The notes under the pieces were generated by a model. The model searched no databases. It worked only from the letters and a program-made list of their open reading frames with translations, and had not been told where the DNA came from. Made by a program: the position numbers and the translations under genes. A stretch of 64,000 nt of DNA from the NCBI RefSeq assembly GCF_900091725.1, contig NZ_FMBW01000071.1, positions 62,001 to 126,000 on the forward strand, read 5' to 3'. Shown piece after piece: positions 32,740-59,679 of this stretch (its first letter is position 1; each line of letters starts with the position of its first letter). This DNA is from Streptomyces sp. DvalAA-43. Its GTDB lineage: Bacteria > Actinomycetota > Actinomycetes > Streptomycetales > Streptomycetaceae.

Positions 32740-35049
32740 ATGCAGAGTCCTGCCGAACGCAAGGTAGACGTCCATGGGCTGCTGTCCAGCAAAGAGCTCA
32801 CAGAGCGGCTCGGGATGAACCGCGCCAGTCTCACCCGGATGAGAAGCCGGTCCCCGAAGGACGCTCCCCAGCCCATCCGCGTAGGGGATACGGACTATTA
32901 CGACCCGGAACAAGTCGTCCACTGGTTCGACCAGCGTCTCGTACCCGCCCGCTGCCGAACGTCCGAAGAGGGCGACGACGCCACCTACGGCGCACGGCTG
33001 CGTAAATCTCACGGGCTGCCGAGCACGCAGAGCGATGAACAGCGCCCAGCAGCACCGCACAGTCCGGACCGCCCCGCTCGGCAGGGCCGTGCGGGGAAGA
33101 ACACACCACACTCCGGAAAGCAGCACATCCTCGCGTTCATGCGTGCCTTGCCGGTGAAGGCCGAACACCCCGAGCGGCTCCTCGACTTCACCGCTCTGCT
33201 CCTCGCGCTCCTGCTGCTGCGCGGAAACAGCCCGTGGGGGCGCCTACGTGCGAGGGCGGAGGAACGAAGCACCACGAGCCTGGTGCTACTGGAGGAGATC
33301 CGGATCCGGACGGAACAGGTGCTGCGACGGGCCCGGTACAACGTGACGGTCACCCCCTCGTTCGACGGCCTGCGGTTCCTCTCGTGCGACGAACTGCGAG
33401 ACCTCATGCGTGCTGTCGAGCAGACCCCCGACGACATCGTCCACGACGTGATCGCTCAGTACGAATCCCTGGTCCGCCCTCAGGCGCGTCACTTCTTCAC
33501 TCCCCGAGGCGTGGCCGAACTGGGCGCGGCCCTGGCTCTTGCGAGCCACCCCGGAAATCCGCGCACCGCGTACGACCCCTATCTGCGTGGAGGCGAGTTC
33601 CCGGCCGCCCTGCCTTCCCGGCTCACGTTCCGCGGACGGGCCGCCGTTCAGGCGACGCTGCTCCTGGCCGTGCTCCGGCTGGCCCTGATCGGGGCCGTTT
33701 CCCCCTCGATCCGGTGCACGGCTCTCGAACCCTGGCGTGACCGCGCGAGTACGCCGGGCAAGGCGGACCTCGTGCTGACCAACCCGCCGTTCAACACGAG
33801 GGTCGACCGGGACACCCCGCAGCGACGAATCGGTTCGTGGCCCTATGGTCCTCCTCCGCACGAGGTGGCCACGTACGCCTACCTCCAGCACTGCATCGAG
33901 CAGCTCGAAGAGGGCGGTCGGGCCGTTGTCGTCATGCCGAGCAAGGCGGGGAACTCCCTCAACCGGGCCGAACGCGAAATCCGTGGGCAAATACTGCTGA
34001 GCGGTGTGTTCGAGGCCGCGATCGCGCTCCCCGACCGGTTGTTCACCTCGACCAAGGTCCCCGTGATGCTGTGGCTCCTCCGCCACCCATCCGACAAGTG
34101 CGACCGCGTGCTCTTCCTCGACGCTCAGCACCTCGGCCGGCAGACCGGCGGCCGACGCGTACTGGAAGAGACCGACGTACAGGCCGTGCTCGCGGCGTAC
34201 CGTGCCGCGAGCGAGGGGGCGGAACCCTCACTTCCGTACGCCTTGGTCGACTCCACCGTGCTGAGCGCCTCAGCACCCGACTACTCGCTCAACCCACGCG
34301 ACCACATCCGACCGGACGCCCCGGAAGCATCTCGTACCTCCGTGCGTCGGCAGCTCGCCGAGGTGAACCTGTTGACCGACCGCTGCAGGTACGCAGACCA
34401 GATGGCAGGCGTACACACCCAGGATGCTTCATACGCCTCACTCCGCGACGCGACCTGGTGTTCCGTGCCCCTGGGTGAGTTCTGTGACGTCCAGGCGGGC
34501 GCCAAGTTCAACCATGCCTACGCCCGGCATTCCACCGAACCCCGCGAGATACAGGCCGTATTTCCCCGGCAGCTCCGGGAAGGCCGCATCATGCCCGATG
34601 CCGAACGGCTCGTCAGTGAACAGCTCGTCGAACTCCACCAGAAACATCGCCTGCTCGGTGGCGACATCGTTCTCGCCCGCGCAGGGGCCGCCCGCCGGCC
34701 CGCGCTCGTACAACCCGACCAGAGCGGCTTCCTGATGAGCGGCAACGTGGCCCGAATCCGCTGTGTTCACACAGACCAGATCGTGCCCGAGTTCCTGCAC
34801 CTCGCCCTGGGCCAGGACGAGGTGATGAACCGGATCAGGGACCGTGCGGCGTCCACTGCCGTCCCTTCGGTCTCCACCGATGTGCTCCGCAGCATCGAGG
34901 TCGCCCTTCCGCCGCTTCCGGTCCAGCTGCACATCGTGGCGCTCCTCCACGCCCAGGACCACCAGGTCCGCGCCCACCGTGAGCTGGCTGCCAAAGCCGC
35001 CGAAGCCCGCACGCTGATGGCCGCCTACCTGTTCGCCCCCGCCCGCTGA
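32740..35049 (+). CDS. N-6 DNA methylase fused to type I specificity-like domain
   Basis: A 769-aa protein. Residues 14-65 form a helix-turn-helix like those of MerR/excisionase proteins (LLSSKELTERLGMNRASLTR); residues about 225-510 are an HsdM-like methylase with FFTPRGVAEL and the catalytic NPPF (348-351); residues about 565-769 resemble a type I S-subunit half (EFCDVQAGAKF, GDIVLARAGA, ALPPLPVQLHIVALLHAQD). The SAM-binding motif I, normally DPxCGSGG, reads DPYLRGGEF (279-287), so it is altered. It likely methylates adenine in a bipartite or asymmetric site, or acts as a DNA-sensing protein. No HsdR gene is adjacent. A small membrane protein gene follows by 23 bp. Confidence 0.85.
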   Translation: MQSPAERKVDVHGLLSSKELTERLGMNRASLTRMRSRSPKDAPQPIRVGDTDYYDPEQVVHWFDQRLVPARCRTSEEGDDATYGARLRKSHGLPSTQSDEQRPAAPHSPDRPARQGRAGKNTPHSGKQHILAFMRALPVKAEHPERLLDFTALLLALLLLRGNSPWGRLRARAEERSTTSLVLLEEIRIRTEQVLRRARYNVTVTPSFDGLRFLSCDELRDLMRAVEQTPDDIVHDVIAQYESLVRPQARHFFTPRGVAELGAALALASHPGNPRTAYDPYLRGGEFPAALPSRLTFRGRAAVQATLLLAVLRLALIGAVSPSIRCTALEPWRDRASTPGKADLVLTNPPFNTRVDRDTPQRRIGSWPYGPPPHEVATYAYLQHCIEQLEEGGRAVVVMPSKAGNSLNRAEREIRGQILLSGVFEAAIALPDRLFTSTKVPVMLWLLRHPSDKCDRVLFLDAQHLGRQTGGRRVLEETDVQAVLAAYRAASEGAEPSLPYALVDSTVLSASAPDYSLNPRDHIRPDAPEASRTSVRRQLAEVNLLTDRCRYADQMAGVHTQDASYASLRDATWCSVPLGEFCDVQAGAKFNHAYARHSTEPREIQAVFPRQLREGRIMPDAERLVSEQLVELHQKHRLLGGDIVLARAGAARRPALVQPDQSGFLMSGNVARIRCVHTDQIVPEFLHLALGQDEVMNRIRDRAASTAVPSVSTDVLRSIEVALPPLPVQLHIVALLHAQDHQVRAHRELAAKAAEARTLMAAYLFAPAR

Positions 35050-35367: not shown

Positions 35368-35373
35368 CTCGGA

Positions 35374-35412
35374 ACCGCCTTAGGGATTCGAACCCGAGGC
35401 CTACGCGTTACG
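35374..35412 (-). repeat. tRNA-Thr 3'-end fragment 1 (degenerate)
   Basis: Matches the 3' half of the tRNA-Thr gene at 59606-59679 with a few changes (T-arm GATTCGAACCC intact, TA for TC in the acceptor part). No 5' half is present. It reads as an old att scar, and borders the methylase region on the left. Confidence 0.75.
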
Positions 35413-35614: not shown

Positions 35615-35619
35615 CAGCA

Positions 35620-35650
35620 GAGCCACCTTCGGGATTCGAACCCGACACCT
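35620..35650 (-). repeat. tRNA-Thr 3'-end fragment 2 (degenerate)
   Basis: Acceptor and T-arm part similar to tRNA-Thr (GCCACCTTCGGGATTCGAAC), after which the match fades around CACCTACCGCG. Second of three tandem tRNA scars; 208 bp before fragment 2 and 183 bp after it show no gene. Confidence 0.7.
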
Positions 35651-35832: not shown

Positions 35833-35875
35833 GAGCCGCCTTCGGGATTCGAACCCGAGACCTACGCATTACGAG
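35833..35875. repeat. attL: 43-bp exact copy of the tRNA-Thr 3' half
   Basis: Identical over 43 bases and in the same orientation to 59605-59647, the discriminator-to-anticodon-loop part of the intact tRNA-Thr(CGT). Sequence on either side differs (an A before, ACCAT after). This is the displaced 3' end left by site-specific integration into the tRNA. Confidence 0.88.
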
Positions 35876-36336: not shown

Positions 36337-39300
36337 TCAGAGTCCCTGGAGCTGCTCGATGATCTGCATGGGGCTCTTCTCCAAGGTGAACCAGTCTGCG
36401 ACGACGATCCGACCCGCGTCTTGCGTGTACTCAAGCGCGGCATCCAGCGCGGGCTGGAGGTCGGTGCTCACCGCGTCCATTTCGCACATGTGGAGCGGAT
36501 GCTTCGCCACCACGGCGTGGCGCAGGCCCCCGCCCGAGGCGAAGGCCAATCCGGGCAGATCCCCGTTGAGGAGGGTGCCCTTCAACATCTTCTGGAGGCC
36601 GGTCAGGGACCGGCGGGCGCGGTCGGCGGAGGTGCTGGCGAGACCGCCTGACAGGACAGTCAGCAGGTCACCGGCGAGCCGCCAATCGAGTAGGGAGTGG
36701 TAGGCCATGTTCGAGTAGTCGCGCAGGCAGCGGGGGCACGAGGAGGTGCAGATTCCCGCGTGCTCGGTCTGCCTCAGCGCGTCCAGGTAGGTATGGACGG
36801 CCTGCATGAACTCGGCGATCACCTGCGGGCTGCCGAGGTGCGTGCTGAAGCCCGCACCGTTCTCCAGGGCATCGGCCAGGAAGGCGTAGGCGACAGGGCC
36901 GTCTGGGTGCGGTCCGGCGTGGATTCCGGCCAGCAGTTCCTGTCGGCCGACATCGAGGAACTGGGCGGCAGCGCTGCGCAGGAGGAACGCGAGCGAGTAC
37001 CAGGCGGCCCGCCTGCCCTGGCTGATGTCGCCGCCGTAGGCGGGGGCAGTAGGGGTGAGGTTGAGCCGGTAGCTGTGAGCCTCGTCGACAGCGGAAACCG
37101 GGCCGAGGAAGAAGAAGTCCGTGGGCAGGACGGCACCCAGGGCCACCTGCTGCTGGTCGCCGGTGTTCATTCCTGTGGCGAGGTACCCACCCCAGGGGCC
37201 CGCTGCGCGGCGCAATGAGAACAGGTCGCCGTTGTTGTCGTTGATGATGTACCGCTCGCCCGGTCCGGAGTAGACGTGTGCTTCCTCCCAGGAGGCGAAG
37301 CGGAGGGTCAAGAGGTTCGCGGCTGCCCGGGACGAGACCGTGTTCGGAGTCCAGGCGAAGACCCCGTCGAAGTCGCGCGGAGCACTGGCCCGGAACCCGG
37401 CGGGTTCCCGCAGGTCAACGACGTCGTAGTCGTCGGCCTCGCAGGTCGGGCAGGTGCCCTCGCTGCTGGACGGCGTCTTCTCGACGTGGTTGCAGACGCG
37501 GCACAGGCCCACGATCCGGGGGTGTTCCAGTGGTTCCGCGACGGGCCTCACGCCCCTGGGCATGGGCTCGAAATCGGTGATGCCGGTGACGGTGTAAACC
37601 TTGCCGTCCTTGACCACCTCGCTGCCCGGTGCGAACTGTGAGACGGACATGGCAATGTCACGGTCGATGGTGTTGCCGGGCGGCCACGGGAACCTCTTCT
37701 GCGGGACGTCCAGGTAGAGCTGCCGGACGCGGGTCGGGAAGCCGAACATGGGCAGCACGCCCGCATGCGCCAGCCGCTCGCTGAGCTCCTCGGCGCCTGC
37801 GGGCATAGCGGCCACCTCGGTGATGCGGCGCAGCAGCTTTTCCCGCCACTGGCTTCCGAGGAGGTCGGCGGACTGGAGCGGGGTGAAGGCGGTGAGGGCC
37901 TGTGCCGTCGCGGCCAGAACGCTGCTCTGCTGGTCGAGCCAGTCCCGTACGTCAGGCAGGGCGGCAGCCCAGTCCCTGGCCTTGCCGAACTCGCCGTGCA
38001 CGCTGCCCGAGCCGCCATGGGTGTCGAGGCCGCGGAACGCGAGGCGCAGAACCTCGGCGGCCATGGCCCGTTCCAGGATCTCCGGACGCTCGAGGGTGAG
38101 ATAGGGCGGGGGCGTGGGGTCGTTGGTGATGGACGACGGGTTCGCGAAATAGTGCTCGTCGTGGCTGCGTCCCCGGCAGACCGTGAGGGCGGCCGCCACG
38201 GGAGAGGAGCGGCGGCCCGCGCGTCCGACCCGCTGCTGGTAGTTGAAGCGGCTCGGCGGCATGTTGGCCATCAGGACTGCGGAGAGCGGCCCGATGTCTA
38301 CGCCGGCTTCCATCGTGGTGGTGACCGACAGAAGGTCGATCCCGTGCACGAGCGGAACCTCAGGCGGGTCGTTGAGGAAGACCTGCTGGAAGCGGGCCTG
38401 GCGTGACTGGGCATCGAGGCGATCGGTCTGCCCCGTCAGCTCGGCGCAGTTCAGGCGGAAGGCGGCGCGGCCGCTGGCGGCCTTCCAGGCGTAGTAGTCG
38501 CTCGCCTCGGGGTTTGCGTCGGGCGCCGAATGGGTGAGGAGCTGGCTGCGGCACCGCGTGCAGGTTCCGGCGCTCGGCGTGAGGTGACGGCGTCCGCAGT
38601 GGGTGCACGTCCAGGAGTGGCCAGGAGAGGGCTGTACAGCCGTCTTCCTCGGGTCGATGAGGTAGTCGCGTACGGTGCCGCTGCCCCAGGCGGCTTCCGC
38701 CGCAGCCTGTACGTCGTCGGGATGCATGCCCTGACGTTCGGCGACGCCTGCCCAGAATTCCTTGAGCCGTGGCGGGGGCTTGTCCCTGCCTTCGCGGAGA
38801 CTGGTGAAGCGGCGGAGTTCGGCGAGGATCCGAAGGCTCGCTCGGCCGAGGCCGTCGCGGTCCGGTGTGGCTGGCGCAGGGGTGACCGAGCCCAGGCCGA
38901 GCGACTCGATGTCGCGGCCAGCGCCGGAGAACAAGGCTTCGAGGGTGTTCTCCAGGAGGCCGTCTTCAGAGCTGAGGGCGGCCTGCGCCGCGTCCGAGGT
39001 GTTCGCCTGGAGTGCGGGAGGCTGCTGCTCCCAGTCGAAGAGCTCGTGCCAGGGCTGGTTCTGGACACGCTGCACACTCGGTTTTGGGCCGGCGGGGTTG
39101 ACTCCCAGGGAGAGCAAACGCGTGTTGACGTGCACCTTGGCCAGGGAGTCGAGCGTCGGAGGGGAGGAGAGCCGTTCTCCCGCCGCGGCTGCGGCGTGTT
39201 CGTCGCCGTCCATCAGTGCCAGACGCAGGGCACTCAGATCGTTCTTGTTCCGCGTGCGGAGGCGCTCGATGGCGTCGGCAATGTCTGGCGACTGTGCTCC

Positions 39301-41709
39301 TCCCGCATCACGGACGGCGGCGACGTCCTCGGCGATGGCGGCGGACTTTCCGAGTTCGTCCAGGGCGAGGAGACGGACGAGGTCCTGGTAGTGGCGCAGC
39401 TCCATGCCCGCAGAGAGCTTCGCGGCGTCCTGCCGACTGTCGGTGAAGACGATCAGCTTGCGTTCGGCGGGGTCGGTGAACTGCTCAGCCAGCTCGTCCG
39501 ACAGCACCTGGTTGATCTTCTCGAAACCGGTCCTCATCGTCCGTACGGGCGAGGTCAGCCGTACGGGGTCCGTGATGGGCCTGCGCGTGCGGTCCTTGGC
39601 GTAGCGGCGCTCCCAGTCGGCTCCGCAGCAGGGGCTGCGGGTGGGGAAGGGCGGGAGGGAGGAGAGGGCGAGCCTGGACTGGCCGGTCTTCTTGTCTGCA
39701 GGAGTGCTTACGTGGAAGGTCCAGCCGGTGAAACCGGCTTCCCGGTTGCGCAGGTGTCCGCTGGCCGGATCGTAGACGCTGCGCCGGAAGGCGAAGGTGA
39801 CACTGCCCTTGTCCGCGCTCCACTCGGCGTCGTCGTCAGCGCGCTGGGGCTTCGTGGACGGCCAATAGACGACGTAGTTGGCCGCCGTGCGCTCCTTGCC
39901 CGTCTGGTCGGGAACCCGGGAGAGGTCGGGGCTGTCGGGGAGCAGGACAGAATTGAAGAGATTGCCTCCGGTGGCGTTCTGAGGGGCGTAGCCGCCGAAC
40001 ATCGCCTCACCACAGGACTGGCAGTAGAGCAGCTCCAGGACACGGGCGCCGCAGTCGCAGGACGCGCGCGGGACGGAGTAGATCCTGCCGACGAATCGTT
40101 CGGAGTGCATGAGCGGGGTGGGAACCTCAGGGCACTGGCGGTCGGTGCAGGCCCACATTCCCGCGACGTTGCGGAAGAAGAGGTGGATACGGATCCGGGG
40201 CAGACTACTGGCTCCGGCAGCCGCCGCAGCGCGGATGGCGGTCGCCGTGCCGTGCAGGGCCAGGTCGGCTTCCTCCTTGCTGTTGGCAGGGAAGAGCTTC
40301 CTGGCTAGGGAGGCGGCGGCCATCGACGGGGCGGAGGGCGCGCTCGATCCGGCGCCAAGCGCGCTGGCCAGCGCGTCCGCCGCGCGGGTCGTGGCGAGCA
40401 GCTGGGCGGCCTCAACTGGATCGGGTTTCGTACGGGAGTACTCCGCCAGCTGGGCGGCCGCCGCGGAGATGTTCTCGGGGCCCTGGGCGCGGGGCGCGGC
40501 CTCTCCGGGGATGAAGTGGAAGGAGCCTTCGTCCGCGGCGAAGAACTCCTGGAGGAAGAGGCGGTCCGTATCGCGGGTCTCGTCCAGCGAGGCGGATGCG
40601 GCGAGGATGCGGAGCTTCTCGGGGCGTCGGCTCAGGCCGAGCCGGTGCACGAGATTGCGGATCAGGTACGCGGTCTCGGTGCCCTGCGTCCCGCGGTACA
40701 TGTGGAGCTCGTCCAACACCAGGGTGAACCGGGCGTCGTCGTACGAGTCCAGCCACTGTTCCGTGCTGCGGAAGAAGTCCTCGTCGCGGCTGCGCTGGAG
40801 CATCACGTTGAGCATGGAGTAGTTCGTGATCAAGATGTCGGGGGACGCGTGGTACATGTCCCACCGGCTGCGCATCTCCGCTCCGTCCAGGCGGGGGGCG
40901 AAGTAGCGAACGTCCTCCTTGCCACTCTCCTCGGCGGCCTTGCGGGCTCGCTCGCTGCGGGCGGCGGTGGTCTTTAGGTAGGTGCGTAGCTCGTCGACGG
41001 CGAAGCGCTGGTCCGGGCCTCCGGTGACGGGGGTGCTGCCGGTGAAGCGCCCGAAGTAGAAGCGGTGGCCCTGCCGGTGCTCTTCAAGCCACTCGCGGAC
41101 CAGGTCGCTGTCCAGGGCGCGCCTGAGCCTGACGAGCTGGTCGTCGACGAGTGCGTTCATCGGGTAGAGGATCATCGCCCGGACTGCGGGGGCGTGCCCG
41201 GTCTCGCCCTCCCGCTGCGGGCGGTAGTCCGTAGAAGCCCGCTCCCACCACCGGTTGAGTACGGCGGGGGCCCCCTTCCAATCCACTGACTCGCGCAGCA
41301 GATCGGCCAGAATGGGCAGGAGGAACGCTTCGGTCTTCCCGGATCCGGTGCCCGCAGTGATCACCGCGTTCCGCCCGGCGGCCATCGTGCTCGCCAGAGC
41401 CCGTTCCTGGTGGGTGTAGAGCTGCATGCCCTCCTCGAAGAGCCCGCGCTCGGCGAATCCCGCCAGTTCGGCGGGGGCGCCGGCGGCCTTGGCCGACTCG
41501 GCGATGCTGTGCCCTGTGAGGCCGTACTCGGGCCGGAGCTCGACGAACGGGTCGGCGAAGACACCGCCGGGCTGATCGAGCAGGGCCCGGCGCTCGGCCT
41601 GGAGGGCGTCGTCGCGGAGCCGGAAGGCGGTGTCGTAGTAGCGCAGGTAGGCGTCGACCAGGGCTTTGTGCGTGGCGAAGGCGTCCAGGCCAGACAGGGG
41701 CATGCTCAT
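36337..41709 (-). CDS. Large DEAD/DEAH-type helicase with DUF1998-like zinc-binding C-terminus
   Basis: A 1790-aa SF2 helicase. Walker A AGTGSGKT is at 119-126 and motif II is DELH (333-336); motif III-like AASASLDE and motif VI QQRVGRAGRR (late in the protein) complete the core, which is split by a roughly 800-residue insertion. Several Cys pairs (CDCG, CQSCG, CTHCGRR with CTRCRS, CRVCNHV with CPTCEA) suggest zinc ribbons, and the C-terminal CTSSCPRCLRDYSN matches the DUF1998/MrfA-type zinc-binding region. MrfA-like helicases act in DNA repair; related ones occur in phage defence (DISARM DrmA/DrmB). The ATG at 41709 overlaps the stop of the upstream gene (ATGA). Last gene of a three-gene operon. 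Confidence 0.88.
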   Translation of the reverse strand: MSMPLSGLDAFATHKALVDAYLRYYDTAFRLRDDALQAERRALLDQPGGVFADPFVELRPEYGLTGHSIAESAKAAGAPAELAGFAERGLFEEGMQLYTHQERALASTMAAGRNAVITAGTGSGKTEAFLLPILADLLRESVDWKGAPAVLNRWWERASTDYRPQREGETGHAPAVRAMILYPMNALVDDQLVRLRRALDSDLVREWLEEHRQGHRFYFGRFTGSTPVTGGPDQRFAVDELRTYLKTTAARSERARKAAEESGKEDVRYFAPRLDGAEMRSRWDMYHASPDILITNYSMLNVMLQRSRDEDFFRSTEQWLDSYDDARFTLVLDELHMYRGTQGTETAYLIRNLVHRLGLSRRPEKLRILAASASLDETRDTDRLFLQEFFAADEGSFHFIPGEAAPRAQGPENISAAAAQLAEYSRTKPDPVEAAQLLATTRAADALASALGAGSSAPSAPSMAAASLARKLFPANSKEEADLALHGTATAIRAAAAAGASSLPRIRIHLFFRNVAGMWACTDRQCPEVPTPLMHSERFVGRIYSVPRASCDCGARVLELLYCQSCGEAMFGGYAPQNATGGNLFNSVLLPDSPDLSRVPDQTGKERTAANYVVYWPSTKPQRADDDAEWSADKGSVTFAFRRSVYDPASGHLRNREAGFTGWTFHVSTPADKKTGQSRLALSSLPPFPTRSPCCGADWERRYAKDRTRRPITDPVRLTSPVRTMRTGFEKINQVLSDELAEQFTDPAERKLIVFTDSRQDAAKLSAGMELRHYQDLVRLLALDELGKSAAIAEDVAAVRDAGGAQSPDIADAIERLRTRNKNDLSALRLALMDGDEHAAAAAGERLSSPPTLDSLAKVHVNTRLLSLGVNPAGPKPSVQRVQNQPWHELFDWEQQPPALQANTSDAAQAALSSEDGLLENTLEALFSGAGRDIESLGLGSVTPAPATPDRDGLGRASLRILAELRRFTSLREGRDKPPPRLKEFWAGVAERQGMHPDDVQAAAEAAWGSGTVRDYLIDPRKTAVQPSPGHSWTCTHCGRRHLTPSAGTCTRCRSQLLTHSAPDANPEASDYYAWKAASGRAAFRLNCAELTGQTDRLDAQSRQARFQQVFLNDPPEVPLVHGIDLLSVTTTMEAGVDIGPLSAVLMANMPPSRFNYQQRVGRAGRRSSPVAAALTVCRGRSHDEHYFANPSSITNDPTPPPYLTLERPEILERAMAAEVLRLAFRGLDTHGGSGSVHGEFGKARDWAAALPDVRDWLDQQSSVLAATAQALTAFTPLQSADLLGSQWREKLLRRITEVAAMPAGAEELSERLAHAGVLPMFGFPTRVRQLYLDVPQKRFPWPPGNTIDRDIAMSVSQFAPGSEVVKDGKVYTVTGITDFEPMPRGVRPVAEPLEHPRIVGLCRVCNHVEKTPSSSEGTCPTCEADDYDVVDLREPAGFRASAPRDFDGVFAWTPNTVSSRAAANLLTLRFASWEEAHVYSGPGERYIINDNNGDLFSLRRAAGPWGGYLATGMNTGDQQQVALGAVLPTDFFFLGPVSAVDEAHSYRLNLTPTAPAYGGDISQGRRAAWYSLAFLLRSAAAQFLDVGRQELLAGIHAGPHPDGPVAYAFLADALENGAGFSTHLGSPQVIAEFMQAVHTYLDALRQTEHAGICTSSCPRCLRDYSNMAYHSLLDWRLAGDLLTVLSGGLASTSADRARRSLTGLQKMLKGTLLNGDLPGLAFASGGGLRHAVVAKHPLHMCEMDAVSTDLQPALDAALEYTQDAGRIVVADWFTLEKSPMQIIEQLQGL

Positions 41710-42665
41710 GCGGTCTCCAGGCGGCGGTGCAGAGTGTGGGCGATGCGCTCGGCGATGAAGAAGGGGACTCCGTCGTAGTGCTCCGTGTTCGCCGTACGCA
41801 GGCTCGCGAGCCCTGTGCATAGGACGGCTGTGCGTTCCTGAGCCAAGGGCAGGGAAGTCTTGCGATCGGCGGTCAGGCGTCCCAGAGCATTGCGTCCTGC
41901 CTGCCCCCGAACGGGATGATCAGCCTTCCACCGCAGGGGGAGTACTGACGGACGGAGGGCGTGGTGGATGCCGGCCCTGCGGTCGACGCTATGCCAGGTC
42001 CGCTCCGGGGGAAGGACGCGGGTATGGAGGCCCGGCGCCGCCTGGCGGGGAGGCTCGCACAGGAGCGCGTAGCGGTCCATCCGGCCGAACTGCTTGTACT
42101 TGTACAGGCCGGGTACGGGCCTGCGGCCGAGGAGACCCACGGGGCGGAACCGGCCGGTGAGGGGATCGAGCAGTTCGGCCACGTTGTCGGGTGCCGGTGG
42201 AGCCATCTCCGTCCCCGGGGCGAACGCGCTGAGGGACCGGGAAGCAGACTCAGCCGCGCAAGGGACGACCGTAGCGCTGACAACCGCGGCGAACTCGTGG
42301 AGGCGGGACGGCTCCGTGTACTGCAGCCACAGGGCCGCTGGCAGCGGTATCCCGGACTGCTCATGCTGTTGCGGCATGGCCACCGCCCCGTGCTTCCTGT
42401 AGAAGTCCGGGTCGGTGGGCCGGGCGCCGGTGAGCACGGCGGTCTGGGTGTTCCCGGGCAGGTCGGTGACCTCGCAGGGGTTCGTGCGCCACTGGTCGCC
42501 GCGCCAGTCGATGGTGACGATGCCGAGCGCCTCGATGCGGCTGAGCCACTGGGTGACGGGCTTCCTCTCGTGGCCGCTGGCCCATGACGCGTCACGGATG
42601 AGCGTGCGAAGGGATCCGGTGCCTTGCTCCGCCATCCAGGAAATGAAGAAGTCCGGCTCAAACAC
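41706..42665 (-). CDS. Unknown protein, middle gene of the helicase operon
   Basis: A 319-aa protein that I do not recognise. The first about 60 residues (ISWMAEQGTGSLRTLIRDAS, then KPVTQWLSRIEALGIVTIDW) look like a winged helix. A loosely conserved middle part and a C-terminal segment (PLRWKADHPV, LPLAQERTAVLCTGLASLRT, VPFFIAERIAHTLHRRLE) follow; the latter pattern is seen next to large DUF1998-type helicases, as far as I recall. The GTG start at 42665 overlaps the stop of the upstream gene by eight bases and its own stop overlaps the helicase start by four, so the three genes are translationally coupled. Confidence 0.7.
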   Translation of the reverse strand: MFEPDFFISWMAEQGTGSLRTLIRDASWASGHERKPVTQWLSRIEALGIVTIDWRGDQWRTNPCEVTDLPGNTQTAVLTGARPTDPDFYRKHGAVAMPQQHEQSGIPLPAALWLQYTEPSRLHEFAAVVSATVVPCAAESASRSLSAFAPGTEMAPPAPDNVAELLDPLTGRFRPVGLLGRRPVPGLYKYKQFGRMDRYALLCEPPRQAAPGLHTRVLPPERTWHSVDRRAGIHHALRPSVLPLRWKADHPVRGQAGRNALGRLTADRKTSLPLAQERTAVLCTGLASLRTANTEHYDGVPFFIAERIAHTLHRRLETA

Positions 42666-44676
42666 GCGTGAATCCCCCTCGCGGGAACTGACTCAGGGCG
42701 GCTTCCCTGTAGCGCTTCCACAAGGTGGCGTGGGGGGCCCCTGTCAGGCCGAACAGAGCGATCTTGCTCCAGAAGTCCTTGGCGGCCCGGCTCAGGGTTC
42801 CGAAGTCCGGATCCTGTGACCGCAGCAACGTGACGGCAGGTGCCCCGGTCGCGGAAATGACCACCAGCCACACGGCCTCGGGAGGGACGGGTACGCGTGC
42901 TATCCCGCCGCCACCGAGGACCGGGGCGCGATCCTTCCACCACGCGGGCTCCTGCGGACGCCGGATAGTGAGGAAGTGTCCTCGCGCCGTAAGGAAGCGC
43001 GCGTCTCCGTCCAGCGGGACGGTAACGCTGCCGGAGGGCGTACCGGAAGCAGAGCCAACCGGATGGCCTGCCTGGGGCTCCGCCCCCTGATCCAGGTAGA
43101 AGTCAGCCTCCGCGCCGCCGGCGGTGAGCACGTGTCGGCCTGGAGCCAAGTCTTTACCGCGCAACACCACCAGGCCGTCGGCGGGGACGAGCAGGGGCTG
43201 ACCGTCCAGAGTGACCAGTCCGGGCTCGCGGAACTCCTGGGGAACCATCACATCGGGCTCCCCGCCCAGCAGGAACAGCGAACGGTGGTTCCATTCCTTC
43301 TGCACGCGCAGTCCGTTGCGCAGGCTCAGTCGGTGGCCCGGGACATGGCGGATGTTCTGAATACCGGATCGTGACAGAGCGGCTGTCAGCACCGACTCGT
43401 CGGTGAACTGCAGCTCGGGAGTGATGTGCCAGCCCTGAAGCGGGGCGGCTCCAGGCTGGTACCACCGATGGCCCGTATCAGTCAGGAGCCTCTGAAGCCG
43501 ACTCTGGCCGGATTTGGTGAACAGGAATGTGTAGGGCTCGAAGACGGTCAGCACGTCCGTATCCGTCCAGCCTCCGGCGACCGGGTCTTCGCGCAGGGCC
43601 AGGACATCGCGGCCACGTTCGATCCGTACGGCCGTCTTCGCCCCTCGTGCGGTGAACCCGTGCTGGAGAGCCTGTGCCACAACGGGTATCGCCCCTGAGA
43701 GCGCGTACGCCTGATCCGAGGCACCCGAAGCGAGTTCCAGCGTTCCGCCGGGGTGCTGGAGGGAGTCGCGGGCCACGCCGCCCACGGCCTCCGCGTGCCA
43801 GCGCACCTCCCACCCCATGAAGTCCTCTTCGAGCACCACGCGCAGGGACACGGGGAGCAGGCCACCGTCGATACAGCCGTGCGCGGCGGTCCCGTCCCAG
43901 CCCTCCAGCAGCGTGGCCAGCAAAGGCTCCAGGAGACGGCTCTCGGTCTGGGAATCAAGCGCCTGGCGAAGCCTCTGGGACAGGCCCTTTGGGTTGATGA
44001 CGCTCCACCCCTTGAGCTTCTCCAGCAGCCACGCACCGTCCGCCGGCTGCCCGGGGGACACATGGGATGCCTCGAAGAACCGGATCAGGGCCGTGTGATC
44101 GGAGGCCCTGACCAGCGCCTGGGACTGGGCGTAGCCAATCTTCCGGAGCGTGGGGTTCTCTTTGATCGTGCTGAGACCACGCCCCCCGGCCTGCTCCCGG
44201 AGCCATTCGTCCAGGTAGCCCCACTGGTCAACGACGGCGCTGTAGTAGTTCTCAAGTGGCTTCCGGTGCCGATCGCCGCCCCAGGGGGGCTGGAGCACTT
44301 CAGCGAGGCGCGCGTAGTACGCGGGAGCCCCGACTCCCCGTTCGTTCCGCCGCATGTTTGCAGCTGCCAGGACTGTCGCCGCGAGGAGCGGCAGGCAGGG
44401 GGGTGGATCCTCGCGCTTCCCAAGCCTCCAGGTTCGGCAGCGGTCGACGACTGGCGTGTACGGGTTCCCGTGCCAGGCGAGTGCGGAGCTCACTGCGGTG
44501 CCGAGCTCTTCGACCTCATCTTCCCCCCGGAGGGTGAGTAGCTCTGCTTTGTCGATGAAGAAAAGGACCGGAGTACCCCTCCGGTGCTCGCCGAAGAACA
44601 CACTGGCCAGGCGGGCCTGCCACCATTCGAATGCAGCCCAGTAACTCGAAGGGTGATTGCCGGACCGCGCACTCAT
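42658..44676 (-). CDS. Unknown 672-aa protein, first gene of the helicase operon
   Basis: A large soluble protein with no family that I recognise. It starts at ATG 44676 (MSARSGNHPSSYWAAFEWWQ) after GGAGCAGG; an open extension to 44811 is unlike a real N-terminus. There is a helical N-terminal half (to about residue 330), then a beta-rich part with FMGWEVRWHAEAVGGVARDS, ARGAKTAVRIERGRDVLALR and GLVTLDGQPLLVPADGLVVL segments, suggesting beta-sandwich or receptor-like domains. No Walker, nuclease or methylase motif is visible. Eight-base overlap with the next gene shows operon coupling to the DUF1998-type helicase. Confidence 0.7.
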   Translation of the reverse strand: MSARSGNHPSSYWAAFEWWQARLASVFFGEHRRGTPVLFFIDKAELLTLRGEDEVEELGTAVSSALAWHGNPYTPVVDRCRTWRLGKREDPPPCLPLLAATVLAAANMRRNERGVGAPAYYARLAEVLQPPWGGDRHRKPLENYYSAVVDQWGYLDEWLREQAGGRGLSTIKENPTLRKIGYAQSQALVRASDHTALIRFFEASHVSPGQPADGAWLLEKLKGWSVINPKGLSQRLRQALDSQTESRLLEPLLATLLEGWDGTAAHGCIDGGLLPVSLRVVLEEDFMGWEVRWHAEAVGGVARDSLQHPGGTLELASGASDQAYALSGAIPVVAQALQHGFTARGAKTAVRIERGRDVLALREDPVAGGWTDTDVLTVFEPYTFLFTKSGQSRLQRLLTDTGHRWYQPGAAPLQGWHITPELQFTDESVLTAALSRSGIQNIRHVPGHRLSLRNGLRVQKEWNHRSLFLLGGEPDVMVPQEFREPGLVTLDGQPLLVPADGLVVLRGKDLAPGRHVLTAGGAEADFYLDQGAEPQAGHPVGSASGTPSGSVTVPLDGDARFLTARGHFLTIRRPQEPAWWKDRAPVLGGGGIARVPVPPEAVWLVVISATGAPAVTLLRSQDPDFGTLSRAAKDFWSKIALFGLTGAPHATLWKRYREAALSQFPRGGFTRV

Positions 44677-45022: not shown

Positions 45023-48000
45023 TCACAGAAGCCTGACGTCGACCGACAGGGTCGCCAGGCCCGCAGGGCCGTACAGGTGGAGCACGATGCCCGAGGGCCC
45101 TTCGCCCATGGCGATGCCGTGGACCGGGGCGCCGGTCAGGACGGTGTGGACGAGGTGGCCCGTCCTCGGGTCCCAGATCCGGACACCGCTGGCGCCTCCT
45201 GAGACGAGCAGCGTGCGGTCGTCGGGTGCGGGCAGGCCGGTCAGGGCGAAGGTGTCCTGGGACTCCCAGGCGGTGATCCGGGTCCGGGTGGCCACGTCCC
45301 AGACACCGATGTGTGTCCCGTTCGACATCACCAGGAGCGGGTCGCCATCGCCCTGCAGGATGTACAAGACGCTGCCGTGCCCCCCTCTGTGGTCCCAGCG
45401 CGGCAGCGCACCGGTACGGCGTCCCGATGCCACTTCGATGAGCACGACCTCCTGGCCGACGCCCGCCACGACGACGACATCGCCGGAGGACGAGGGAGGC
45501 AGGGCTCCCAGCAGCTGGACGGGGGATTCGCCGATTTCGGCGCTGAGCGGGACCGTACTCGCGGTGGACTGCTCGGCCTCGGGGTCCAGGACAACTGATG
45601 TGAGGTCTCTGATGTGGCCCGTGGCACCCATGGAAACGGACATCGGCAGGCCTGCGGCCGTCCAGGCGACGCATGAGGACAGGATGGACCGGGACAGATC
45701 CTTCCGACTCGTCATCACCATCTGTCCCGAGATGAGATCCCAAATGGACAGGTCGCCCTTCGGGTCGCTGACTGCCACTCGTGTCCCAGCGGGGACGAGC
45801 GGCAGGACCTGACTGACGAGCCCGGTCCCGATGCGCTTCAGCAGTGTTCCCGTCGTGGCGCTGTGGACGTCGAGCCCGCTTCGGGTGGCGAGGACGAGGA
45901 CATCTCCACCGGTGGCGGACAGAAGCGACCTGCACACGGACCACGTGGGTGCACGCCGCCGGTGCTGCTCCAACGAGGGTCCCCGGTACACCGACTCCGT
46001 CAACCCGTCCTCGTAGAGCGGCCCGTCGAAGCCAGGATCCCAGATCCTGATGCCCTGCGGACCAGCCGACACTACTCGCGGACCGGCGGGATCTTCAAGG
46101 ACCGCGAGGGCGTCCACGGACTTGATGTCAGCATCGAACGAACGGGCTGAATCCGTGCCGACGCCCTGCAGCACGAGGCGGCCGCGTGCGACGTAGGCGA
46201 ATGCCGTCCCTTCGGGTCCCGCCACCGCCGTGCTGCCGCCTTCCCGGGTACGCGCCACCGGCTGAGCGGTGAAGGGGTTCCACACTTGCAGGGGTACCAG
46301 GGGATTGGGGGACTCGGCGATCAGCAGGTCGTCGTCAGCGTTGTCCGGCCGGGCGACACCCACCACGCCCGACACCTGACCGCCTCCGAAGGAAGGCCCC
46401 ACTGTCATGCCCGACACCGGGTCCCACAGACGGATTCCGTCCTCGCAGCAGACGGCGACCAGGGCCTCGCCGCTCCTCCGGCGGACCACCGCCGTCAGCC
46501 GGAGGAAAGACGCCCGTCCGCGGTCGTACTCCCGGGTGATGTCGTGCGGGAACCCGGGAGCCTCGAACAGCTTGTTCGCGCGCGGCCTCCACACGAAGGC
46601 ACCGCGGCTGGTCAGGACGCACAGCCTCCACAACGCGGGACCATCTGCCAGGACATGCACGTCATGGGTGCGGGGAAGCGGCGTCTGCGCGATGGGCTGC
46701 CCGGAGACCGGGTCGTAGATCCACACATCATGCTGCCCCAGCGTGACCAGGAAGGTGCGCCCGCCGGTCGCCAGGATGGTGCGTAGGCGGTGCACCGGCC
46801 CCGTGTCCAGGTCCGCGACATGTTGGCCCGTCCTGGCATCCCAGATCCGGACACCACCGGCCTCTGCCGCGACGGCGACCAGCTGGCGCCCGTCCAGCGT
46901 CGGCACCACACATAGGGCGTTCGTCTGCCCCGGCGCGGGCGCCAGTACGTTCACGCGCGCTGCCCACCGCCCCCAAGCCGGCCTCACGGGCAGGCCGCCC
47001 AGGGTGCTGGCCCACATTTCGTCCGTCCCGCCGGGTCCCCGTACGCCGCGGTGGAAGGCGATGCTGCCCAAACGCGAGGCGTTGTCGGTGCTGGCATCGG
47101 CGTACGGCTCGATCAGGGCCGCCGCCGTCAGGTTCCGCCGCTCAGGATCCCCGGCGGGAAGGGGCAGCGCGAGGCGGGCACGCAGGGTCCCGGAGGTCTC
47201 CTGGGCGAGGAGATCCAACGGCACCTCACGGTCGGTCAGGAGGCCGCCGGCTGCCGCGTGGTGCAGGAAGTGCCTGCGGACGTACGGATGCGCCAGGTGC
47301 GGCCGGGCGCGCTCCACCAGCCCTGCGAGGGCGCGAGTGATGGCGACCTGCGCCGCCGTGTGCGTGCGAGGCCCGTCCACAGTCGCCGCTGGGGCCGGAC
47401 GCCAGTCGTGGCCGGTCAGCAGTAGGTCGGTCAGCCGCTGGTGCACGGGGCGGTAGACGATACGGGCATCCTCTTCGGCGGTGGCGAGGTAGCCGGTGAG
47501 ACGGCCGGATCGGAGCGTGCGGATCACGTGGTCGGCCGCGTCAAGGTCAGCGTAGCCCGGACCGTACGCTGCGGAGGCCAGCGCGGCCGTGACGGCAGGC
47601 CAGACCTCCGCCCACGGCAGTCCGGCCCCCGGTGCGAAAGCCGTCGCGCGCAACGCGGTGACCAGCAGGCCGGCGCTGACTCCCGTAGCGGTGGCTACCG
47701 CCTGAACATCCTCGCGCAGGAGGCCGGTGGTGCCGTCGGCGAGGCGCCTCAGCCAGCCCGCCTCGTCGAGGTTCTGGCGGACCACAGCCGTCCTCAGCTG
47801 GTCGGCGGCGATCCGGGCGTCGAGGAAGGAAGGCGCGACCGCTTCCGCGATGTGGCGTGCTGCCGCCTCGGCGGCCTCCGGCGCCCCGTGATACGGGCTG
47901 GACTGCGGGGCGCACAGCAGGGTGGCGGTGTAGACGGCGATGTCAGCGGAGCAGTCGGGGCCGTCAGTGCGCAGAATCTGTACGGCCGCGTCCTCCGTGC

Positions 48001-49486
48001 GCAGTGCGTCGGCCAGCTTTCGGAGCAGATGGTCGGCCCATTCGTCGTGCAGGGCCGTTCCGGACGAGTACAAGGTGGTGGGGGAGCTGCGGACGCCGAT
48101 CACGAGGCGGACGGCCCGTTCGGTGCCGTCGGCGGTGGTCAGCCGGGACAGCGGGACGATGAGGTCGCCTACGCAGGCGAGCGGGTCCTCGGCCTCGTCC
48201 AGTGCGTCGATGACGACATTGACGGGGCTGGCGGCGCCGGAGGAAGACCGCTCGGCCAGCAGACGTAGCAGGGTCTGCAAGGGGAGTTCGCGGCCGTCGG
48301 GAGCGCCGCCGAGCGCGGAGAGCAGCTCTTCGACCACCACCCGCGCGGTTTTGTTCCGGGCCAGGACGGCGACGTCGACGGCGCCGGGGCCCGGTCGCAA
48401 CCTGTCCGGGATGCTCGCCATCACGGCCGTGTACTTCGGGTCGGCCTCGAAGCCCGCGTCGGCCAGGGTCACCAGCCGCGCCAGGAGAGCCGACTTTCCC
48501 GAGCCTGCGGCTCCGGTCACCACGAGAACACCAGCGCCCTCGCGGACGAAGTCGACCACGCGCGCCATCGGCTCGGCCCGCCCGCTGAAGTACCATCCGG
48601 GATCGTCAGCCCCGGCCCGTCCCGAGGCCCGCTCCAGCCAGAACTCCTCCAGCGAGCCGGAACCCAGCATGAGCTGACGCAGCGCCGGACTCGTCGCACT
48701 CTCCAACGGCTTGTAGCGCGGGTTGGGCAGGCAGGCGCTCCGGGCGCGGCCCGGCGAGTGAGGCACGATCCACTCGGCGCTGACCAGCTCCTTCTCCACG
48801 CCCTCTTCGTTCAGGCCCACCTGGTGCAGGAGCTGCTCCCACTCCGCGAACGACAGGTGGGAGCTGGTGTAGCCGGAGGCCTCGTCCCGCATCCGCTCGC
48901 AGGCCAGGGCGACGCGCCGGGTGAAGGAGCCCACCAGAGGCTTCTCGAAGTGGTCGCCGGCGGTGATGACGGCGGTTCCCTTGTGTCTGTGGCGTTCATC
49001 GGACAGGTCCTGGAACAGGCTGCCGAGCTCGGCGCGGAGGGTACCGGAGTGGCACGAGTCGACGAGCACCATGACGTGCTCGGACTGGCTGTCCAGGACC
49101 GCGCTAATGAGCTCACTCGTGGGGAACGCGGTCGCCAGCAGCCGTTCTTTTTCCGTCTTCGGAAGCATCAGGTAGTGGCGCTGCGCGAGGCGGCGCATCC
49201 CGTGGCCGGTGATGTAGACGACGACGGCTTCCTTGTAGCTGGCCGCTGCCAGGTTCTGGCCGTGTAGGAAGGCGCGCAGATCGTCCACGGACCGCAGCGA
49301 GTATTCCGCCCGCACCACCTCGAAGCGCCGGTCGTCCCCGAGTTCAGGATCCGCCAGCCACCCGGTGATCCGTTCCACCTGGGCGGCGATGCCCTCTTTG
49401 AAGCCTTCTTGCCCGTCCTCGTAGCCGTCGACTGCGATGACAACCAGCCGCCTGCGGACGATGCCGTCCAGTTCTTCCGCGCTCAA
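45023..49486 (-). CDS. Caspase-like protease / STAND NTPase / beta-propeller protein
   Basis: A 1487-aa multidomain protein. Residues 10-240 form a peptidase C14 (caspase/metacaspase) domain with catalytic His95 (YITGHGM) and Cys145 (LVDSCHSG). Residues 300-500 hold a P-loop NTPase: Walker A GAAGSGKS (325-332), Walker B VVIDALDE (424-431), fitting the STAND class. The C-terminal half (from about 830) has WD-type repeats such as GVRIWDARTG, LSIWDLISG and GVRIWDPRTG, forming one or two beta-propellers. Such designs sense a signal by the propeller, oligomerise and activate the protease; defence by suicide is the usual idea. The start is ATG 49486; a hydrolase gene is divergent 109 bp away. Confidence 0.9.
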   Translation of the reverse strand: MSAEELDGIVRRRLVVIAVDGYEDGQEGFKEGIAAQVERITGWLADPELGDDRRFEVVRAEYSLRSVDDLRAFLHGQNLAAASYKEAVVVYITGHGMRRLAQRHYLMLPKTEKERLLATAFPTSELISAVLDSQSEHVMVLVDSCHSGTLRAELGSLFQDLSDERHRHKGTAVITAGDHFEKPLVGSFTRRVALACERMRDEASGYTSSHLSFAEWEQLLHQVGLNEEGVEKELVSAEWIVPHSPGRARSACLPNPRYKPLESATSPALRQLMLGSGSLEEFWLERASGRAGADDPGWYFSGRAEPMARVVDFVREGAGVLVVTGAAGSGKSALLARLVTLADAGFEADPKYTAVMASIPDRLRPGPGAVDVAVLARNKTARVVVEELLSALGGAPDGRELPLQTLLRLLAERSSSGAASPVNVVIDALDEAEDPLACVGDLIVPLSRLTTADGTERAVRLVIGVRSSPTTLYSSGTALHDEWADHLLRKLADALRTEDAAVQILRTDGPDCSADIAVYTATLLCAPQSSPYHGAPEAAEAAARHIAEAVAPSFLDARIAADQLRTAVVRQNLDEAGWLRRLADGTTGLLREDVQAVATATGVSAGLLVTALRATAFAPGAGLPWAEVWPAVTAALASAAYGPGYADLDAADHVIRTLRSGRLTGYLATAEEDARIVYRPVHQRLTDLLLTGHDWRPAPAATVDGPRTHTAAQVAITRALAGLVERARPHLAHPYVRRHFLHHAAAGGLLTDREVPLDLLAQETSGTLRARLALPLPAGDPERRNLTAAALIEPYADASTDNASRLGSIAFHRGVRGPGGTDEMWASTLGGLPVRPAWGRWAARVNVLAPAPGQTNALCVVPTLDGRQLVAVAAEAGGVRIWDARTGQHVADLDTGPVHRLRTILATGGRTFLVTLGQHDVWIYDPVSGQPIAQTPLPRTHDVHVLADGPALWRLCVLTSRGAFVWRPRANKLFEAPGFPHDITREYDRGRASFLRLTAVVRRRSGEALVAVCCEDGIRLWDPVSGMTVGPSFGGGQVSGVVGVARPDNADDDLLIAESPNPLVPLQVWNPFTAQPVARTREGGSTAVAGPEGTAFAYVARGRLVLQGVGTDSARSFDADIKSVDALAVLEDPAGPRVVSAGPQGIRIWDPGFDGPLYEDGLTESVYRGPSLEQHRRRAPTWSVCRSLLSATGGDVLVLATRSGLDVHSATTGTLLKRIGTGLVSQVLPLVPAGTRVAVSDPKGDLSIWDLISGQMVMTSRKDLSRSILSSCVAWTAAGLPMSVSMGATGHIRDLTSVVLDPEAEQSTASTVPLSAEIGESPVQLLGALPPSSSGDVVVVAGVGQEVVLIEVASGRRTGALPRWDHRGGHGSVLYILQGDGDPLLVMSNGTHIGVWDVATRTRITAWESQDTFALTGLPAPDDRTLLVSGGASGVRIWDPRTGHLVHTVLTGAPVHGIAMGEGPSGIVLHLYGPAGLATLSVDVRLL

Positions 49487-51335: not shown

Positions 51336-51339
51336 GACC

Positions 51340-52710: not shown

Positions 52711-52924
52711 CCGAGAACTATACCGCGGAGTTGGTGATCATGGGGCCGTTTCACTCGAATGAGTCGCTAGAGAGTGAGCAAGACCATAGGGTTCGTGGTG
52801 ATCCATCACCACAAAGAGCAGGGCGATTGTCTTTCGGCGCTGAAGGCTGCGAGCTCAGTTCACAGCCACGCCAGAGCAGCGACGGCCCCGCCGCCACAGA
52901 CACGCCCTTGTAGATCAGGAAGCC

Positions 52925-56609: not shown

Positions 56610-56613
56610 ATCT

Positions 56614-59598: not shown

Positions 59599-59604
59599 AC
59601 CTTG

Positions 59605-59647
59605 GAGCCGCCTTCGGGATTCGAACCCGAGACCTACGCATTACGAG
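59605..59647. repeat. attR: 43-bp repeat inside the intact tRNA-Thr
   Basis: From one base beyond the discriminator to the anticodon loop of tRNA-Thr; identical to 35833-35875. The crossover would lie within these 43 bases. Confidence 0.88.
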
Positions 59648-59679
59648 TGCGTTGCTCTGGCCAACTGAGCTAAGGCGGC
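59606..59679 (-). tRNA. tRNA-Thr (anticodon CGT)
   Basis: Complete cloverleaf on the minus strand, 73 bases plus discriminator: acceptor GCCGCCT/AGGCGGC, D-arm GCTC...GAGC, anticodon stem ACGCA/TGCGT with loop CTCGTAA (CGT reads ACG threonine codons), T-arm TCGGG/CCCGA with TTCGAAT loop. CCA is not encoded. Its 3' half is the integration target of the island, so the intact copy is kept by the sequence at this end. Confidence 0.95.

What the first reader, a model, noticed from the sequence alone, without database searches (positions are those of the whole stretch)
36337..44676. Three-gene operon of a 1790-aa DUF1998-type helicase and two unknown proteins
Genes of 672, 319 and 1790 aa overlap by 8 and 4 bp, so they form one coupled unit. 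The helicase has an intact SF2 core split by a long insert, several zinc ribbons and a DUF1998/MrfA-like C-terminus. The two partners have no family I recognise, and the set lacks the PLD and other genes of DISARM. It sits in a defence island, so it is a good candidate for an undescribed anti-phage system.
Basis: partly seen in the sequence, partly recalled or inferred. Interest (0 to 1): 0.72.

Follow-up and report, generated by a model that had tools for sequence, protein, structure and literature searches.

The report
Known Druantia type IV phage defence
The three-gene unit is a Streptomyces-type copy of an already named bacterial anti-virus system (Druantia type IV) carried on a mobile-looking gene island; it is a real defence locus, but not an undescribed one.

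Summary
In detail: three overlapping minus-strand genes (672, 319, 1790 aa) with a large SF2 helicase and an MrfA-type zinc module. "Undescribed system" does not: the proteins match DruF4, DruL4 and DruE4 in PADLOC-DB (367, 161, 2328 bits), the defining set of Druantia type IV (PMC8565338, passages). In 297 sampled same-family genomes the trio occurs at 20 loci in 19 genomes, and no full-length DruE4 lacks its partners. Not seen in print in the passages I read: DruL is fused to the end of DruF in several relatives, so it is a split-off DruF part. DruL begins with a predicted winged helix. No nuclease was recognised in the trio; DruE's tail keeps no invariant catalytic set, though K1736, H1737 and D1772 persist in 19-22 of 25 rows. 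The operon lies in a ~23.8 kb island between 43-bp repeats of a tRNA-Thr gene; most of it is 98-99% identical to an island in another species whose flanks are 81-85% identical. Best mechanism, largely inferred: DruF-DruL senses infection and licenses DruE to act on phage DNA.

The parts
42658..44676 (-). druF (DruF4), 672 aa; helical N-terminal half, beta-rich C-terminal half with an Ig-like sandwich (low-confidence model)
   Evidence: PADLOC PDLC00052 DruF4 3.1e-110, PDLC00017 DruF2 2.4e-104; model mean pLDDT 63.4
41706..42665 (-). druL (DruL4), 319 aa, overlaps druF by 8 bp
   Evidence: PADLOC PDLC00057 DruL4 8.8e-48; homologous to the C-terminus of fused DruF proteins, hhalign prob 99.3, E 2.2e-20
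42477..42665 (-). predicted winged-helix domain of DruL (residues 1-63)
   Evidence: AlphaFold2 model, block pLDDT 87-95 over this part; best second-look match Z 7.1 over 63 residues, rmsd 2.8; HTH_29 E 0.0055 in 1 of 10 relatives
36337..41709 (-). druE (DruE4), 1790 aa YprA/MrfA-family SF2 helicase, overlaps druL by 4 bp
   Evidence: PADLOC PDLC00051 DruE4, E 0, 2327.8 bits, residues 7-1788 of 1790
41332..41355 (-). Walker A of DruE (residues 119-126)
   Evidence: G120-T126 invariant in 26 rows; residue 119 varies A/S/T
40702..40713 (-). motif II DELH of DruE (residues 333-336)
   Evidence: invariant in 26 rows
38212..38238 (-). motif VI of DruE (residues 1158-1166, QQRVGRAGR)
   Evidence: invariant in 26 rows
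36724..36990 (-). MrfA Zn-binding domain (PF09369, residues 1574-1662)
   Evidence: 24.3 bits against cut-off 24.2; C1654, C1658, C1661 invariant in 26 rows
36340..36642 (-). C-terminal domain of DruE (about residues 1690-1790), no invariant catalytic set
   Evidence: beyond L1686, P1738 alone is invariant in 26 rows; without the aberrant row L015, P1738 and P1780 are invariant, and H1737 (22), D1772 (22) and K1736 (19 of 25) are conserved in most rows
35833..35875 (-). 43-bp direct repeat of the tRNA-Thr 3' part, proposed island end
   Evidence: exact copy of the core at 59605
59605..59647 (-). same 43-bp core inside tRNA-Thr(CGT) (59603-59679), other island end

Best explanation
The operon is a Druantia type IV anti-phage system (DruF-DruL-DruE) carried on a tRNA-Thr genomic island. 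Shown by sequence: identity of the three proteins, coupling of the genes, constant co-occurrence in the sampled genomes, an intact helicase core, no recognised nuclease, and DruF-DruL fusions in relatives. Inferred: DruF and DruL act as one subunit, because they are fused elsewhere. That subunit plays the part of DruH in type III: it senses infection, through a phage protein (Ig-like domain of DruF) or a DNA structure (winged helix of DruL), and licenses DruE. DruE, like DruE of type III, would load on single-stranded 3' tails and translocate, stalling phage replication; cutting, if any, would come from host nucleases or from an activity not recognised here. Probability that it is Druantia IV: about 0.97; that this mechanism is right in outline: about 0.35.
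For: Identity: (DruE4 2328, DruF4 367, DruL4 161 bits) and the published definition. Constant unit: 20 DruL, 20 DruF and 20 full-length DruE4 loci at the same places in the same 19 of 297 genomes, all in the order F-L-E on one strand. Fusion: L012, L013 and L014 hold single 1037-, 1048- and 1024-aa proteins that match both DruF and DruL profiles, directly before druE; L073 is a fourth; hhalign prob 99.3. Winged helix. Sensor role: in type III, DruH has Ig-like domains, binds a phage baseplate protein weakly and is more divergent than DruE (PMC13192584, section 13); here the four distant rows are 20-25% identical for DruF, 22-24% for DruL and 39-41% for DruE, and DruF has an Ig-like stretch. 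DruE of type III prefers 3'-tailed and forked DNA (section 9). A solved type II DruE matches P0001 at E 7.4e-171 (9wae). A type III pair of Mycolicibacterium is described as having no canonical nuclease domain and still protects (PMC13316683, Discussion). Island.
Against: No experiment on Druantia IV was found: the PADLOC paper tested Zorya III, Hachiman II and Lamassu II (passages), and the phrase 'Druantia type IV' occurs in 1 paper of the held library. The mechanism is borrowed from type III, where the studied E. coli DruE has a PLD nuclease and DruH itself cuts DNA, so a partner with its own nuclease is a real precedent. K1736, H1737 and D1772 of the DruE tail are conserved in 19, 22 and 22 of 25 rows, so residual activity there is not excluded. 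The DruF model is poor. The winged helix of DruL and the Ig-like stretch of DruF rest on fold matches below Z 8, a level the tool says may be common. DruF and DruL were not compared with DruH by structure; no DruH profile is listed for them.
Confidence: 0.55

Rival explanations
1. Same system, but one of the three proteins holds an unrecognised nuclease (DruF, or the DruE tail), and DruE delivers DNA to it.
For: In type III the partner DruH nicks DNA (PMC13192584, section 13). The DruF model is poor; DruF matches no Pfam family above noise (best DUF5852, E 0.064 in 1 of 9) and one PDB sequence at E 2. K1736, H1737 and D1772 of DruE are conserved in 19-22 of 25 rows.
Against: No nuclease motif was recognised by eye among the invariant DruF columns; D1772 is lost in three rows and no acidic, lysine or histidine residue beyond L1686 is invariant; DruE tails of types I and II are described as inactivated Vsr (PMC12458937, passages).
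Confidence: 0.25
2. A methylation-linked restriction system: a nearby C5 cytosine methyltransferase marks self DNA and DruFLE attacks unmarked DNA, by analogy with DruM of type II.
For: A C5 methyltransferase lies within 10 kb of 8 of 20 trios against 0.18 expected for random placement; three sit about 0.2 kb from druF; a Nostoc plasmid has dcm just before F-L-E; the window has one at 51340-52710.
Against: 12 of 20 trios have none within 10 kb on their contig, and G060, G139 and G232 have no PF00145 match at E 0.001. In the window the methyltransferase adjoins an Eco29kI-type endonuclease and a Vsr gene, so a type II R-M system explains it. Defence islands attract methyltransferases anyway, and the 8 loci are not all independent.
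Confidence: 0.12
3. The operon is a DNA-repair or plasmid-control cassette (MrfA/YprA-like) and not a phage defence.
For: DruE shares the YprA/MrfA family with repair helicases; no phage assay of Druantia IV was found.
Against: Best match is DruE4 at 2328 bits, patchy occurrence (19 of 297 genomes), location in an island with R-M genes and signs of transfer between species.
Confidence: 0.05
4. It is a new, undescribed system.
For: Partners have no Pfam or NCBIfam family.
Against: All three proteins match named Druantia type IV models and the gene set meets the published definition.
Confidence: 0.02

Closest known systems
Druantia type IV (PADLOC; Payne et al. 2021, PMC8565338)
   Same: DruE + DruF + DruL, no DruM/DruG; gene-by-gene HMM matches
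   Different: Nothing that defines the type; this report adds the DruF-DruL fusions, a predicted winged helix in DruL, and the island with 43-bp repeats
Druantia type II
   Same: DruE and DruF homologous (DruE2 1817 bits, DruF2 348 bits)
   Different: Type II has DruM and DruG (seen in Agrobacterium L072); neither is part of this operon; DruL shows no detectable similarity to that DruG or to that 837-aa DruF
Druantia type III (DruH-DruE; PMC13192584, PMC13316683)
   Same: YprA-family DruE helicase (DruE3 models 235-405 bits); a divergent partner beside it
   Different: The studied E. coli DruE has C-terminal PLD domains; the partner is DruH, which neither DruF nor DruL matches
ARMADA, BRIGADE, TALON, DISARM, Dpd (YprA-helicase systems, PMC12458937, passages and section 7)
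   Same: Same helicase family
   Different: [quoted passage not shown] none of these is in the three-gene unit

Membership tests
Druantia type IV | DruE of the DruE4/DruE2 branch, full length | tested here: met
   PDLC00051 DruE4, 2327.8 bits over residues 7-1788; no tree was built
Druantia type IV | DruF present beside DruE | tested here: met
   PDLC00052 DruF4 3.1e-110
Druantia type IV | DruL in place of DruM and DruG | tested here: met
   PDLC00057 DruL4 8.8e-48
Druantia type IV | no DruG and no DruM in the operon | tested here: met
   The full lists for DruF and DruL hold no DruG or DruM. 13 flanking ORFs scanned (10, 3) show no DruG in the rows printed (three lists were cut at 25). The C5 methyltransferase at 51340-52710 matches DruM2 (229 bits) but scores higher as a type II methyltransferase (270 bits) and lies 6.7 kb away beside an Eco29kI-type endonuclease
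Druantia type IV | protects against phage | not testable with these tools
   no experiment on type IV found
Druantia type II | DruM and DruG encoded with DruF and DruE | tested here: not met
   with the limits given above
Druantia type III | partner DruH | tested here: not met
   no DruH in the full PADLOC lists of DruF and DruL at E 1
DISARM | helicase (DrmA) and DUF1998 protein (DrmB) as separate genes | tested here: not met
   helicase core and MZB are in one protein; best DrmA score 33 bits; separate genes stated in PMC12458937, section 7

The most novel reading that the evidence does not exclude
Type IV and the fused relatives are one lineage in which the true partner of DruE is a single DruF-DruL protein, split in some clades and fused in others, and which works without a nuclease of its own: a sensor subunit with Ig-like and winged-helix parts loads a zinc-rich translocase that stops phage replication mechanically or hands DNA to host nucleases.
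Probability: 0.28. Interest if true: 0.5.

Novelty: new member of a known kind. Interest (0 to 1): 0.27.

Why it matters
It replaces a candidate 'new system' by a precise identity. Beyond that: the DruF-DruL fusions suggest that two genes of unknown function are one functional unit; gene-presence rules that ask for a separate DruL could miss fused loci (inference); and the lack of a recognised nuclease makes type IV a fair case for asking how a helicase-centred system stops phages. No experimental test of type IV was found in the searched library.

Tried and rejected
Undescribed system: rejected. DISARM, Dpd or BREX membership: DrmA, DpdJ and BrxH models score 28-55 bits in the 25 of 29 rows printed, against 2328 for DruE4. 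DruM-like role for the C5 methyltransferase at 51340-52710: not excluded, but a type II R-M context explains it, and 12 of 20 trios lack one within 10 kb on their contig (contig ends make this a lower bound on neighbours). Homology of DruL to DruG, or to the long DruF of a true type II locus: no signal with single-sequence templates, which is weak evidence of absence. Fold searches: DruL gave no Foldseek match at E <= 0.001, and its residues beyond about 80 were barely tested by the second look. The whole-model DruF search gave no Foldseek match at E <= 0.001 and an Ig-like sandwich at residues 447-531 (Z 7.3, rmsd 2.9, 78 residues); at pLDDT 63.4 it should not be leaned on. PDB sequence profiles: DruF one hit at E 2, DruL none at E 10. 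A viral-contig scan with DruF returned no locus; tblastn of DruF in the plasmid collection gave no match. No paper for 9wae was found. 9tu7 was first taken by me for type III DruE; its code is not among the depositions of PMC13192584, so its type is left open. My first statement that the DruE tail has no conserved polar residue was too strong, because one row (L015) departs from the others there; one search repeats the count without it. The BrxA-like domain and Vsr fold reported for other DruE proteins were not tested here. The sequence beside druE in L017 was not identified. The four DruE hits at 361-371 bits (G114, G118, G144, G188) were not examined further. Of 155 plasmid records with a DruE match, 40 were listed and 7 opened; the unannotated Shinella record and the second Calothrix gene were not scanned.
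Full report
What is there. Three genes on the minus strand form one unit: 44676-42658 (672 aa), 42665-41706 (319 aa) and 41709-36337 (1790 aa). The 8-bp (GTGTTTGA) and 4-bp (ATGA) overlaps are plain in the sequence. Homologues in L009 and L011 keep the same 672-aa start and the same overlaps, which supports the ATG at 44676 over the frame-opening GTG at 44811. The genome is 9.3 Mb in 101 contigs; 'Streptomyces-type' rests on its near relatives among named loci (L009-L011 are Streptomyces, 74-88% identical in DruE), not on a record of its own.

What it is. PADLOC-DB recognises all three: DruE4 (2327.8 bits, residues 7-1788), DruF4 (367.3 bits; DruF2 347.9) and DruL4 (161.2 bits). [quoted passage not shown] 168 instances were reported, and the type is present in 11 phyla (PMC8565338, passages). 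The window meets each genomic point of that definition. That paper assayed Zorya III, Hachiman II and Lamassu II against phages, not Druantia IV (passages). 'Druantia type IV' as a phrase is in 1 paper of the held library; of the 7 papers that hold at least two of Druantia, DruE, DruF and DruL, 1 holds DruL. Subscription journals are mostly not held.

The three genes belong together. In 297 genomes drawn from the same family, DruL4 is found in 19 genomes at 20 loci (G000's gene is reported in two pieces), DruF4 in the same 19 genomes at the same 20 loci, and full-length DruE4 (1999-2644 bits) at the same 20 loci (the DruE search was limited to E 1e-100). All 20 have the order F-L-E on one strand: 19 by script and the window itself. 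Four further genomes have only partial DruE-like hits of 361-371 bits. One DruF, in G101, contains an in-frame TGA. Of the 10 loci found in named genomes, 4 have the split trio (L008-L011), 3 have DruF and DruL fused in one protein of 1037, 1048 or 1024 aa directly before druE (L012-L014), 1 has overlapping DruF and DruL frames (L015), 1 is type I by its DruA and DruD matches (L016) and 1 has an unidentified neighbour (L017). L009 and L011 lie on contigs of the same lengths as those of G128 and G265 and score the same, so they were taken as the same loci and L062 and L063 were left out of the 26-row alignments.

DruL is a piece of DruF. The fused proteins match DruF models in their first ~590 residues and DruL models at 694-1039. 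A profile of 10 split DruL proteins aligns to the fused family at 711-1033 with hhalign probability 99.3 and E 2.2e-20, while DruG and the long DruF of a true type II locus (Agrobacterium, L072) give nothing (E 0.42 and 0.66). An Alisedimentitalea plasmid (L073) has a further fusion of 1013 aa, and a Nostoc DruL matches the end of the 1011-residue DruF2 model (E 3e-11). Inference: DruF and DruL work as one subunit. I saw no statement of this in the passages I read.

Anatomy of DruE. The core helicase motifs are invariant in 26 DruE proteins; 318 residues are invariant in all, 19 of them cysteines. Beyond L1686 only P1738 is invariant in 26 rows. One row, L015, departs from the others near its end, so the count was repeated without it: P1738 and P1780 are then invariant, and K1736, H1737 and D1772 are conserved in 19, 22 and 22 of 25 rows. 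No acidic, lysine or histidine residue there is invariant, which fits the published view that DruE of types I and II ends in an inactivated Vsr domain (PMC12458937, passages), but residual activity is not excluded. Solved relatives exist: 9wae (E 7.4e-171 to P0001) is a type II DruE, judged by its 2388-bit full-length match to the Agrobacterium protein; 9tu7 (E 2.3e-52) is a YprA-family helicase whose type I leave open.

Anatomy of the partners. The DruL model (9 sequences, mean pLDDT 81.6, pTM 0.70) begins with a winged-helix-like unit at residues 1-63; the best second-look match is Z 7.1, rmsd 2.8, 63 residues (cullin WHB, 3o6b), followed by FeoC, DasR, NadR and Z-alpha domains at Z 5-6. One of 10 relatives weakly matches Pfam HTH_29 (E 0.0055) and one EAD7 (E 0.21). 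The rest of DruL matched nothing trustworthy. The DruF model is poor (63.4, pTM 0.39): a helical N-terminal half and a beta-rich C-terminal half with an Ig-like sandwich at 447-531. No nuclease or ATPase family was recognised in either. The partners diverge faster than the helicase: in the four distant rows DruF is 20-25%, DruL 22-24% and DruE 39-41% identical to the window.

Setting. The operon lies inside a genomic island. A 43-bp sequence of the 3' part of tRNA-Thr(CGT) (59603-59679) recurs exactly at 35833-35875 in the same orientation, and two decayed copies lie at about 35370 and 35618. In G244, a different species, the same segment lies at a tRNA-Thr(CGT) with the same core at both ends. 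Identity is 97.8-99.1% for DruE, DruL, DruF, the STAND gene, the HATPase gene, the Mrr-helicase and the 200-aa gene, 92.0-94.5% for the Vsr, methyltransferase and endonuclease genes, 80.6% just outside the tRNA and 85.3% further out. This contrast argues for transfer between species. G321 has one tRNA-Thr copy with a stretch resembling the left-flank gene (74% over 412 columns) 3.3 kb away, close to an empty site; in G313 about 52 kb of other DNA lies there. No integrase was recognised among the 11 island proteins scanned with Pfam; small ORFs were not scanned. Other cargo: a 1487-aa STAND-type ATPase with WD40 repeats, a Vsr nuclease, a C5 methyltransferase, an Eco29kI-type endonuclease, a HATPase protein and an Mrr-helicase fusion.

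Methylation. A C5 methyltransferase lies within 10 kb of 8 of 20 trios, against 0.18 expected if the 50 methyltransferase genes (pieces merged by hand) were placed at random. G000 and G244 carry the same island, and G136 and G222 look alike, so the independent count is 6 or 7. Three genomes with the trio have no C5 methyltransferase match. Since islands gather such genes, this is an association and no proof of a shared mechanism.

How it probably works. In type III, DruE prefers 3'-tailed and forked DNA (PMC13192584, section 9). DruH has Ig-like domains, binds a phage baseplate protein weakly, diverges faster than DruE and cuts DNA as a dimer (section 13). In Mycolicibacterium, DruE alone protects less than the pair (PMC13316683, Discussion). 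I infer that DruF-DruL plays the sensor part here and licenses DruE, with arrest of phage replication by translocation. The DruH precedent makes a hidden nuclease in a partner a serious rival; after reading it and I raised that rival (0.20 to 0.25) and lowered the best explanation (0.60 to 0.55), the mechanism in outline (0.40 to 0.35) and the novel case (0.35 to 0.28).

Verdict. It is a new member of a known kind, with a modest new point in the DruF-DruL fusion and the apparent absence of a nuclease.

Noticed in passing
window 35370-35394, 35618-35642, 35833-35875 and 59603-59679: Three direct repeats of the tRNA-Thr 3' part, one exact over 43 bp and two decayed, suggest several elements have entered this tRNA in turn.
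   Followed up: partly
window 32740-35049: N6-adenine methyltransferase with a type I specificity-like end (769 aa), outside the island repeats but in a low-GC stretch.
   Followed up: no
window 45023-49486: 1487-aa STAND-type ATPase with WD40 repeats directly upstream of druF, same strand, no PADLOC match at E 0.01.
   Followed up: no
window 50535-53578: Vsr nuclease, C5 methyltransferase and Eco29kI-type endonuclease look like a type II R-M set; they are less alike to G244 (92.0-94.5%) than the other island genes (97.8-99.1%).
   Followed up: partly
window 54204-58287: A HATPase protein (801-aa frame) followed by an Mrr-nuclease/SF2 helicase fusion (592-aa frame), a possible further defence pair.
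   Followed up: no
L066 46-3591, 5557-12642, 12525-15017 (own genome, contig C36): A type IIG-like methyltransferase, a 2361-aa YprA/DruE-like helicase and a GajB-like helicase in a row recall ARMADA type II as described in PMC12458937; a BrxHII-like gene was not looked for.
   Followed up: partly
L061 (G101): DruF of this genome is reported with an in-frame TGA, so this copy may be dead.
   Followed up: no
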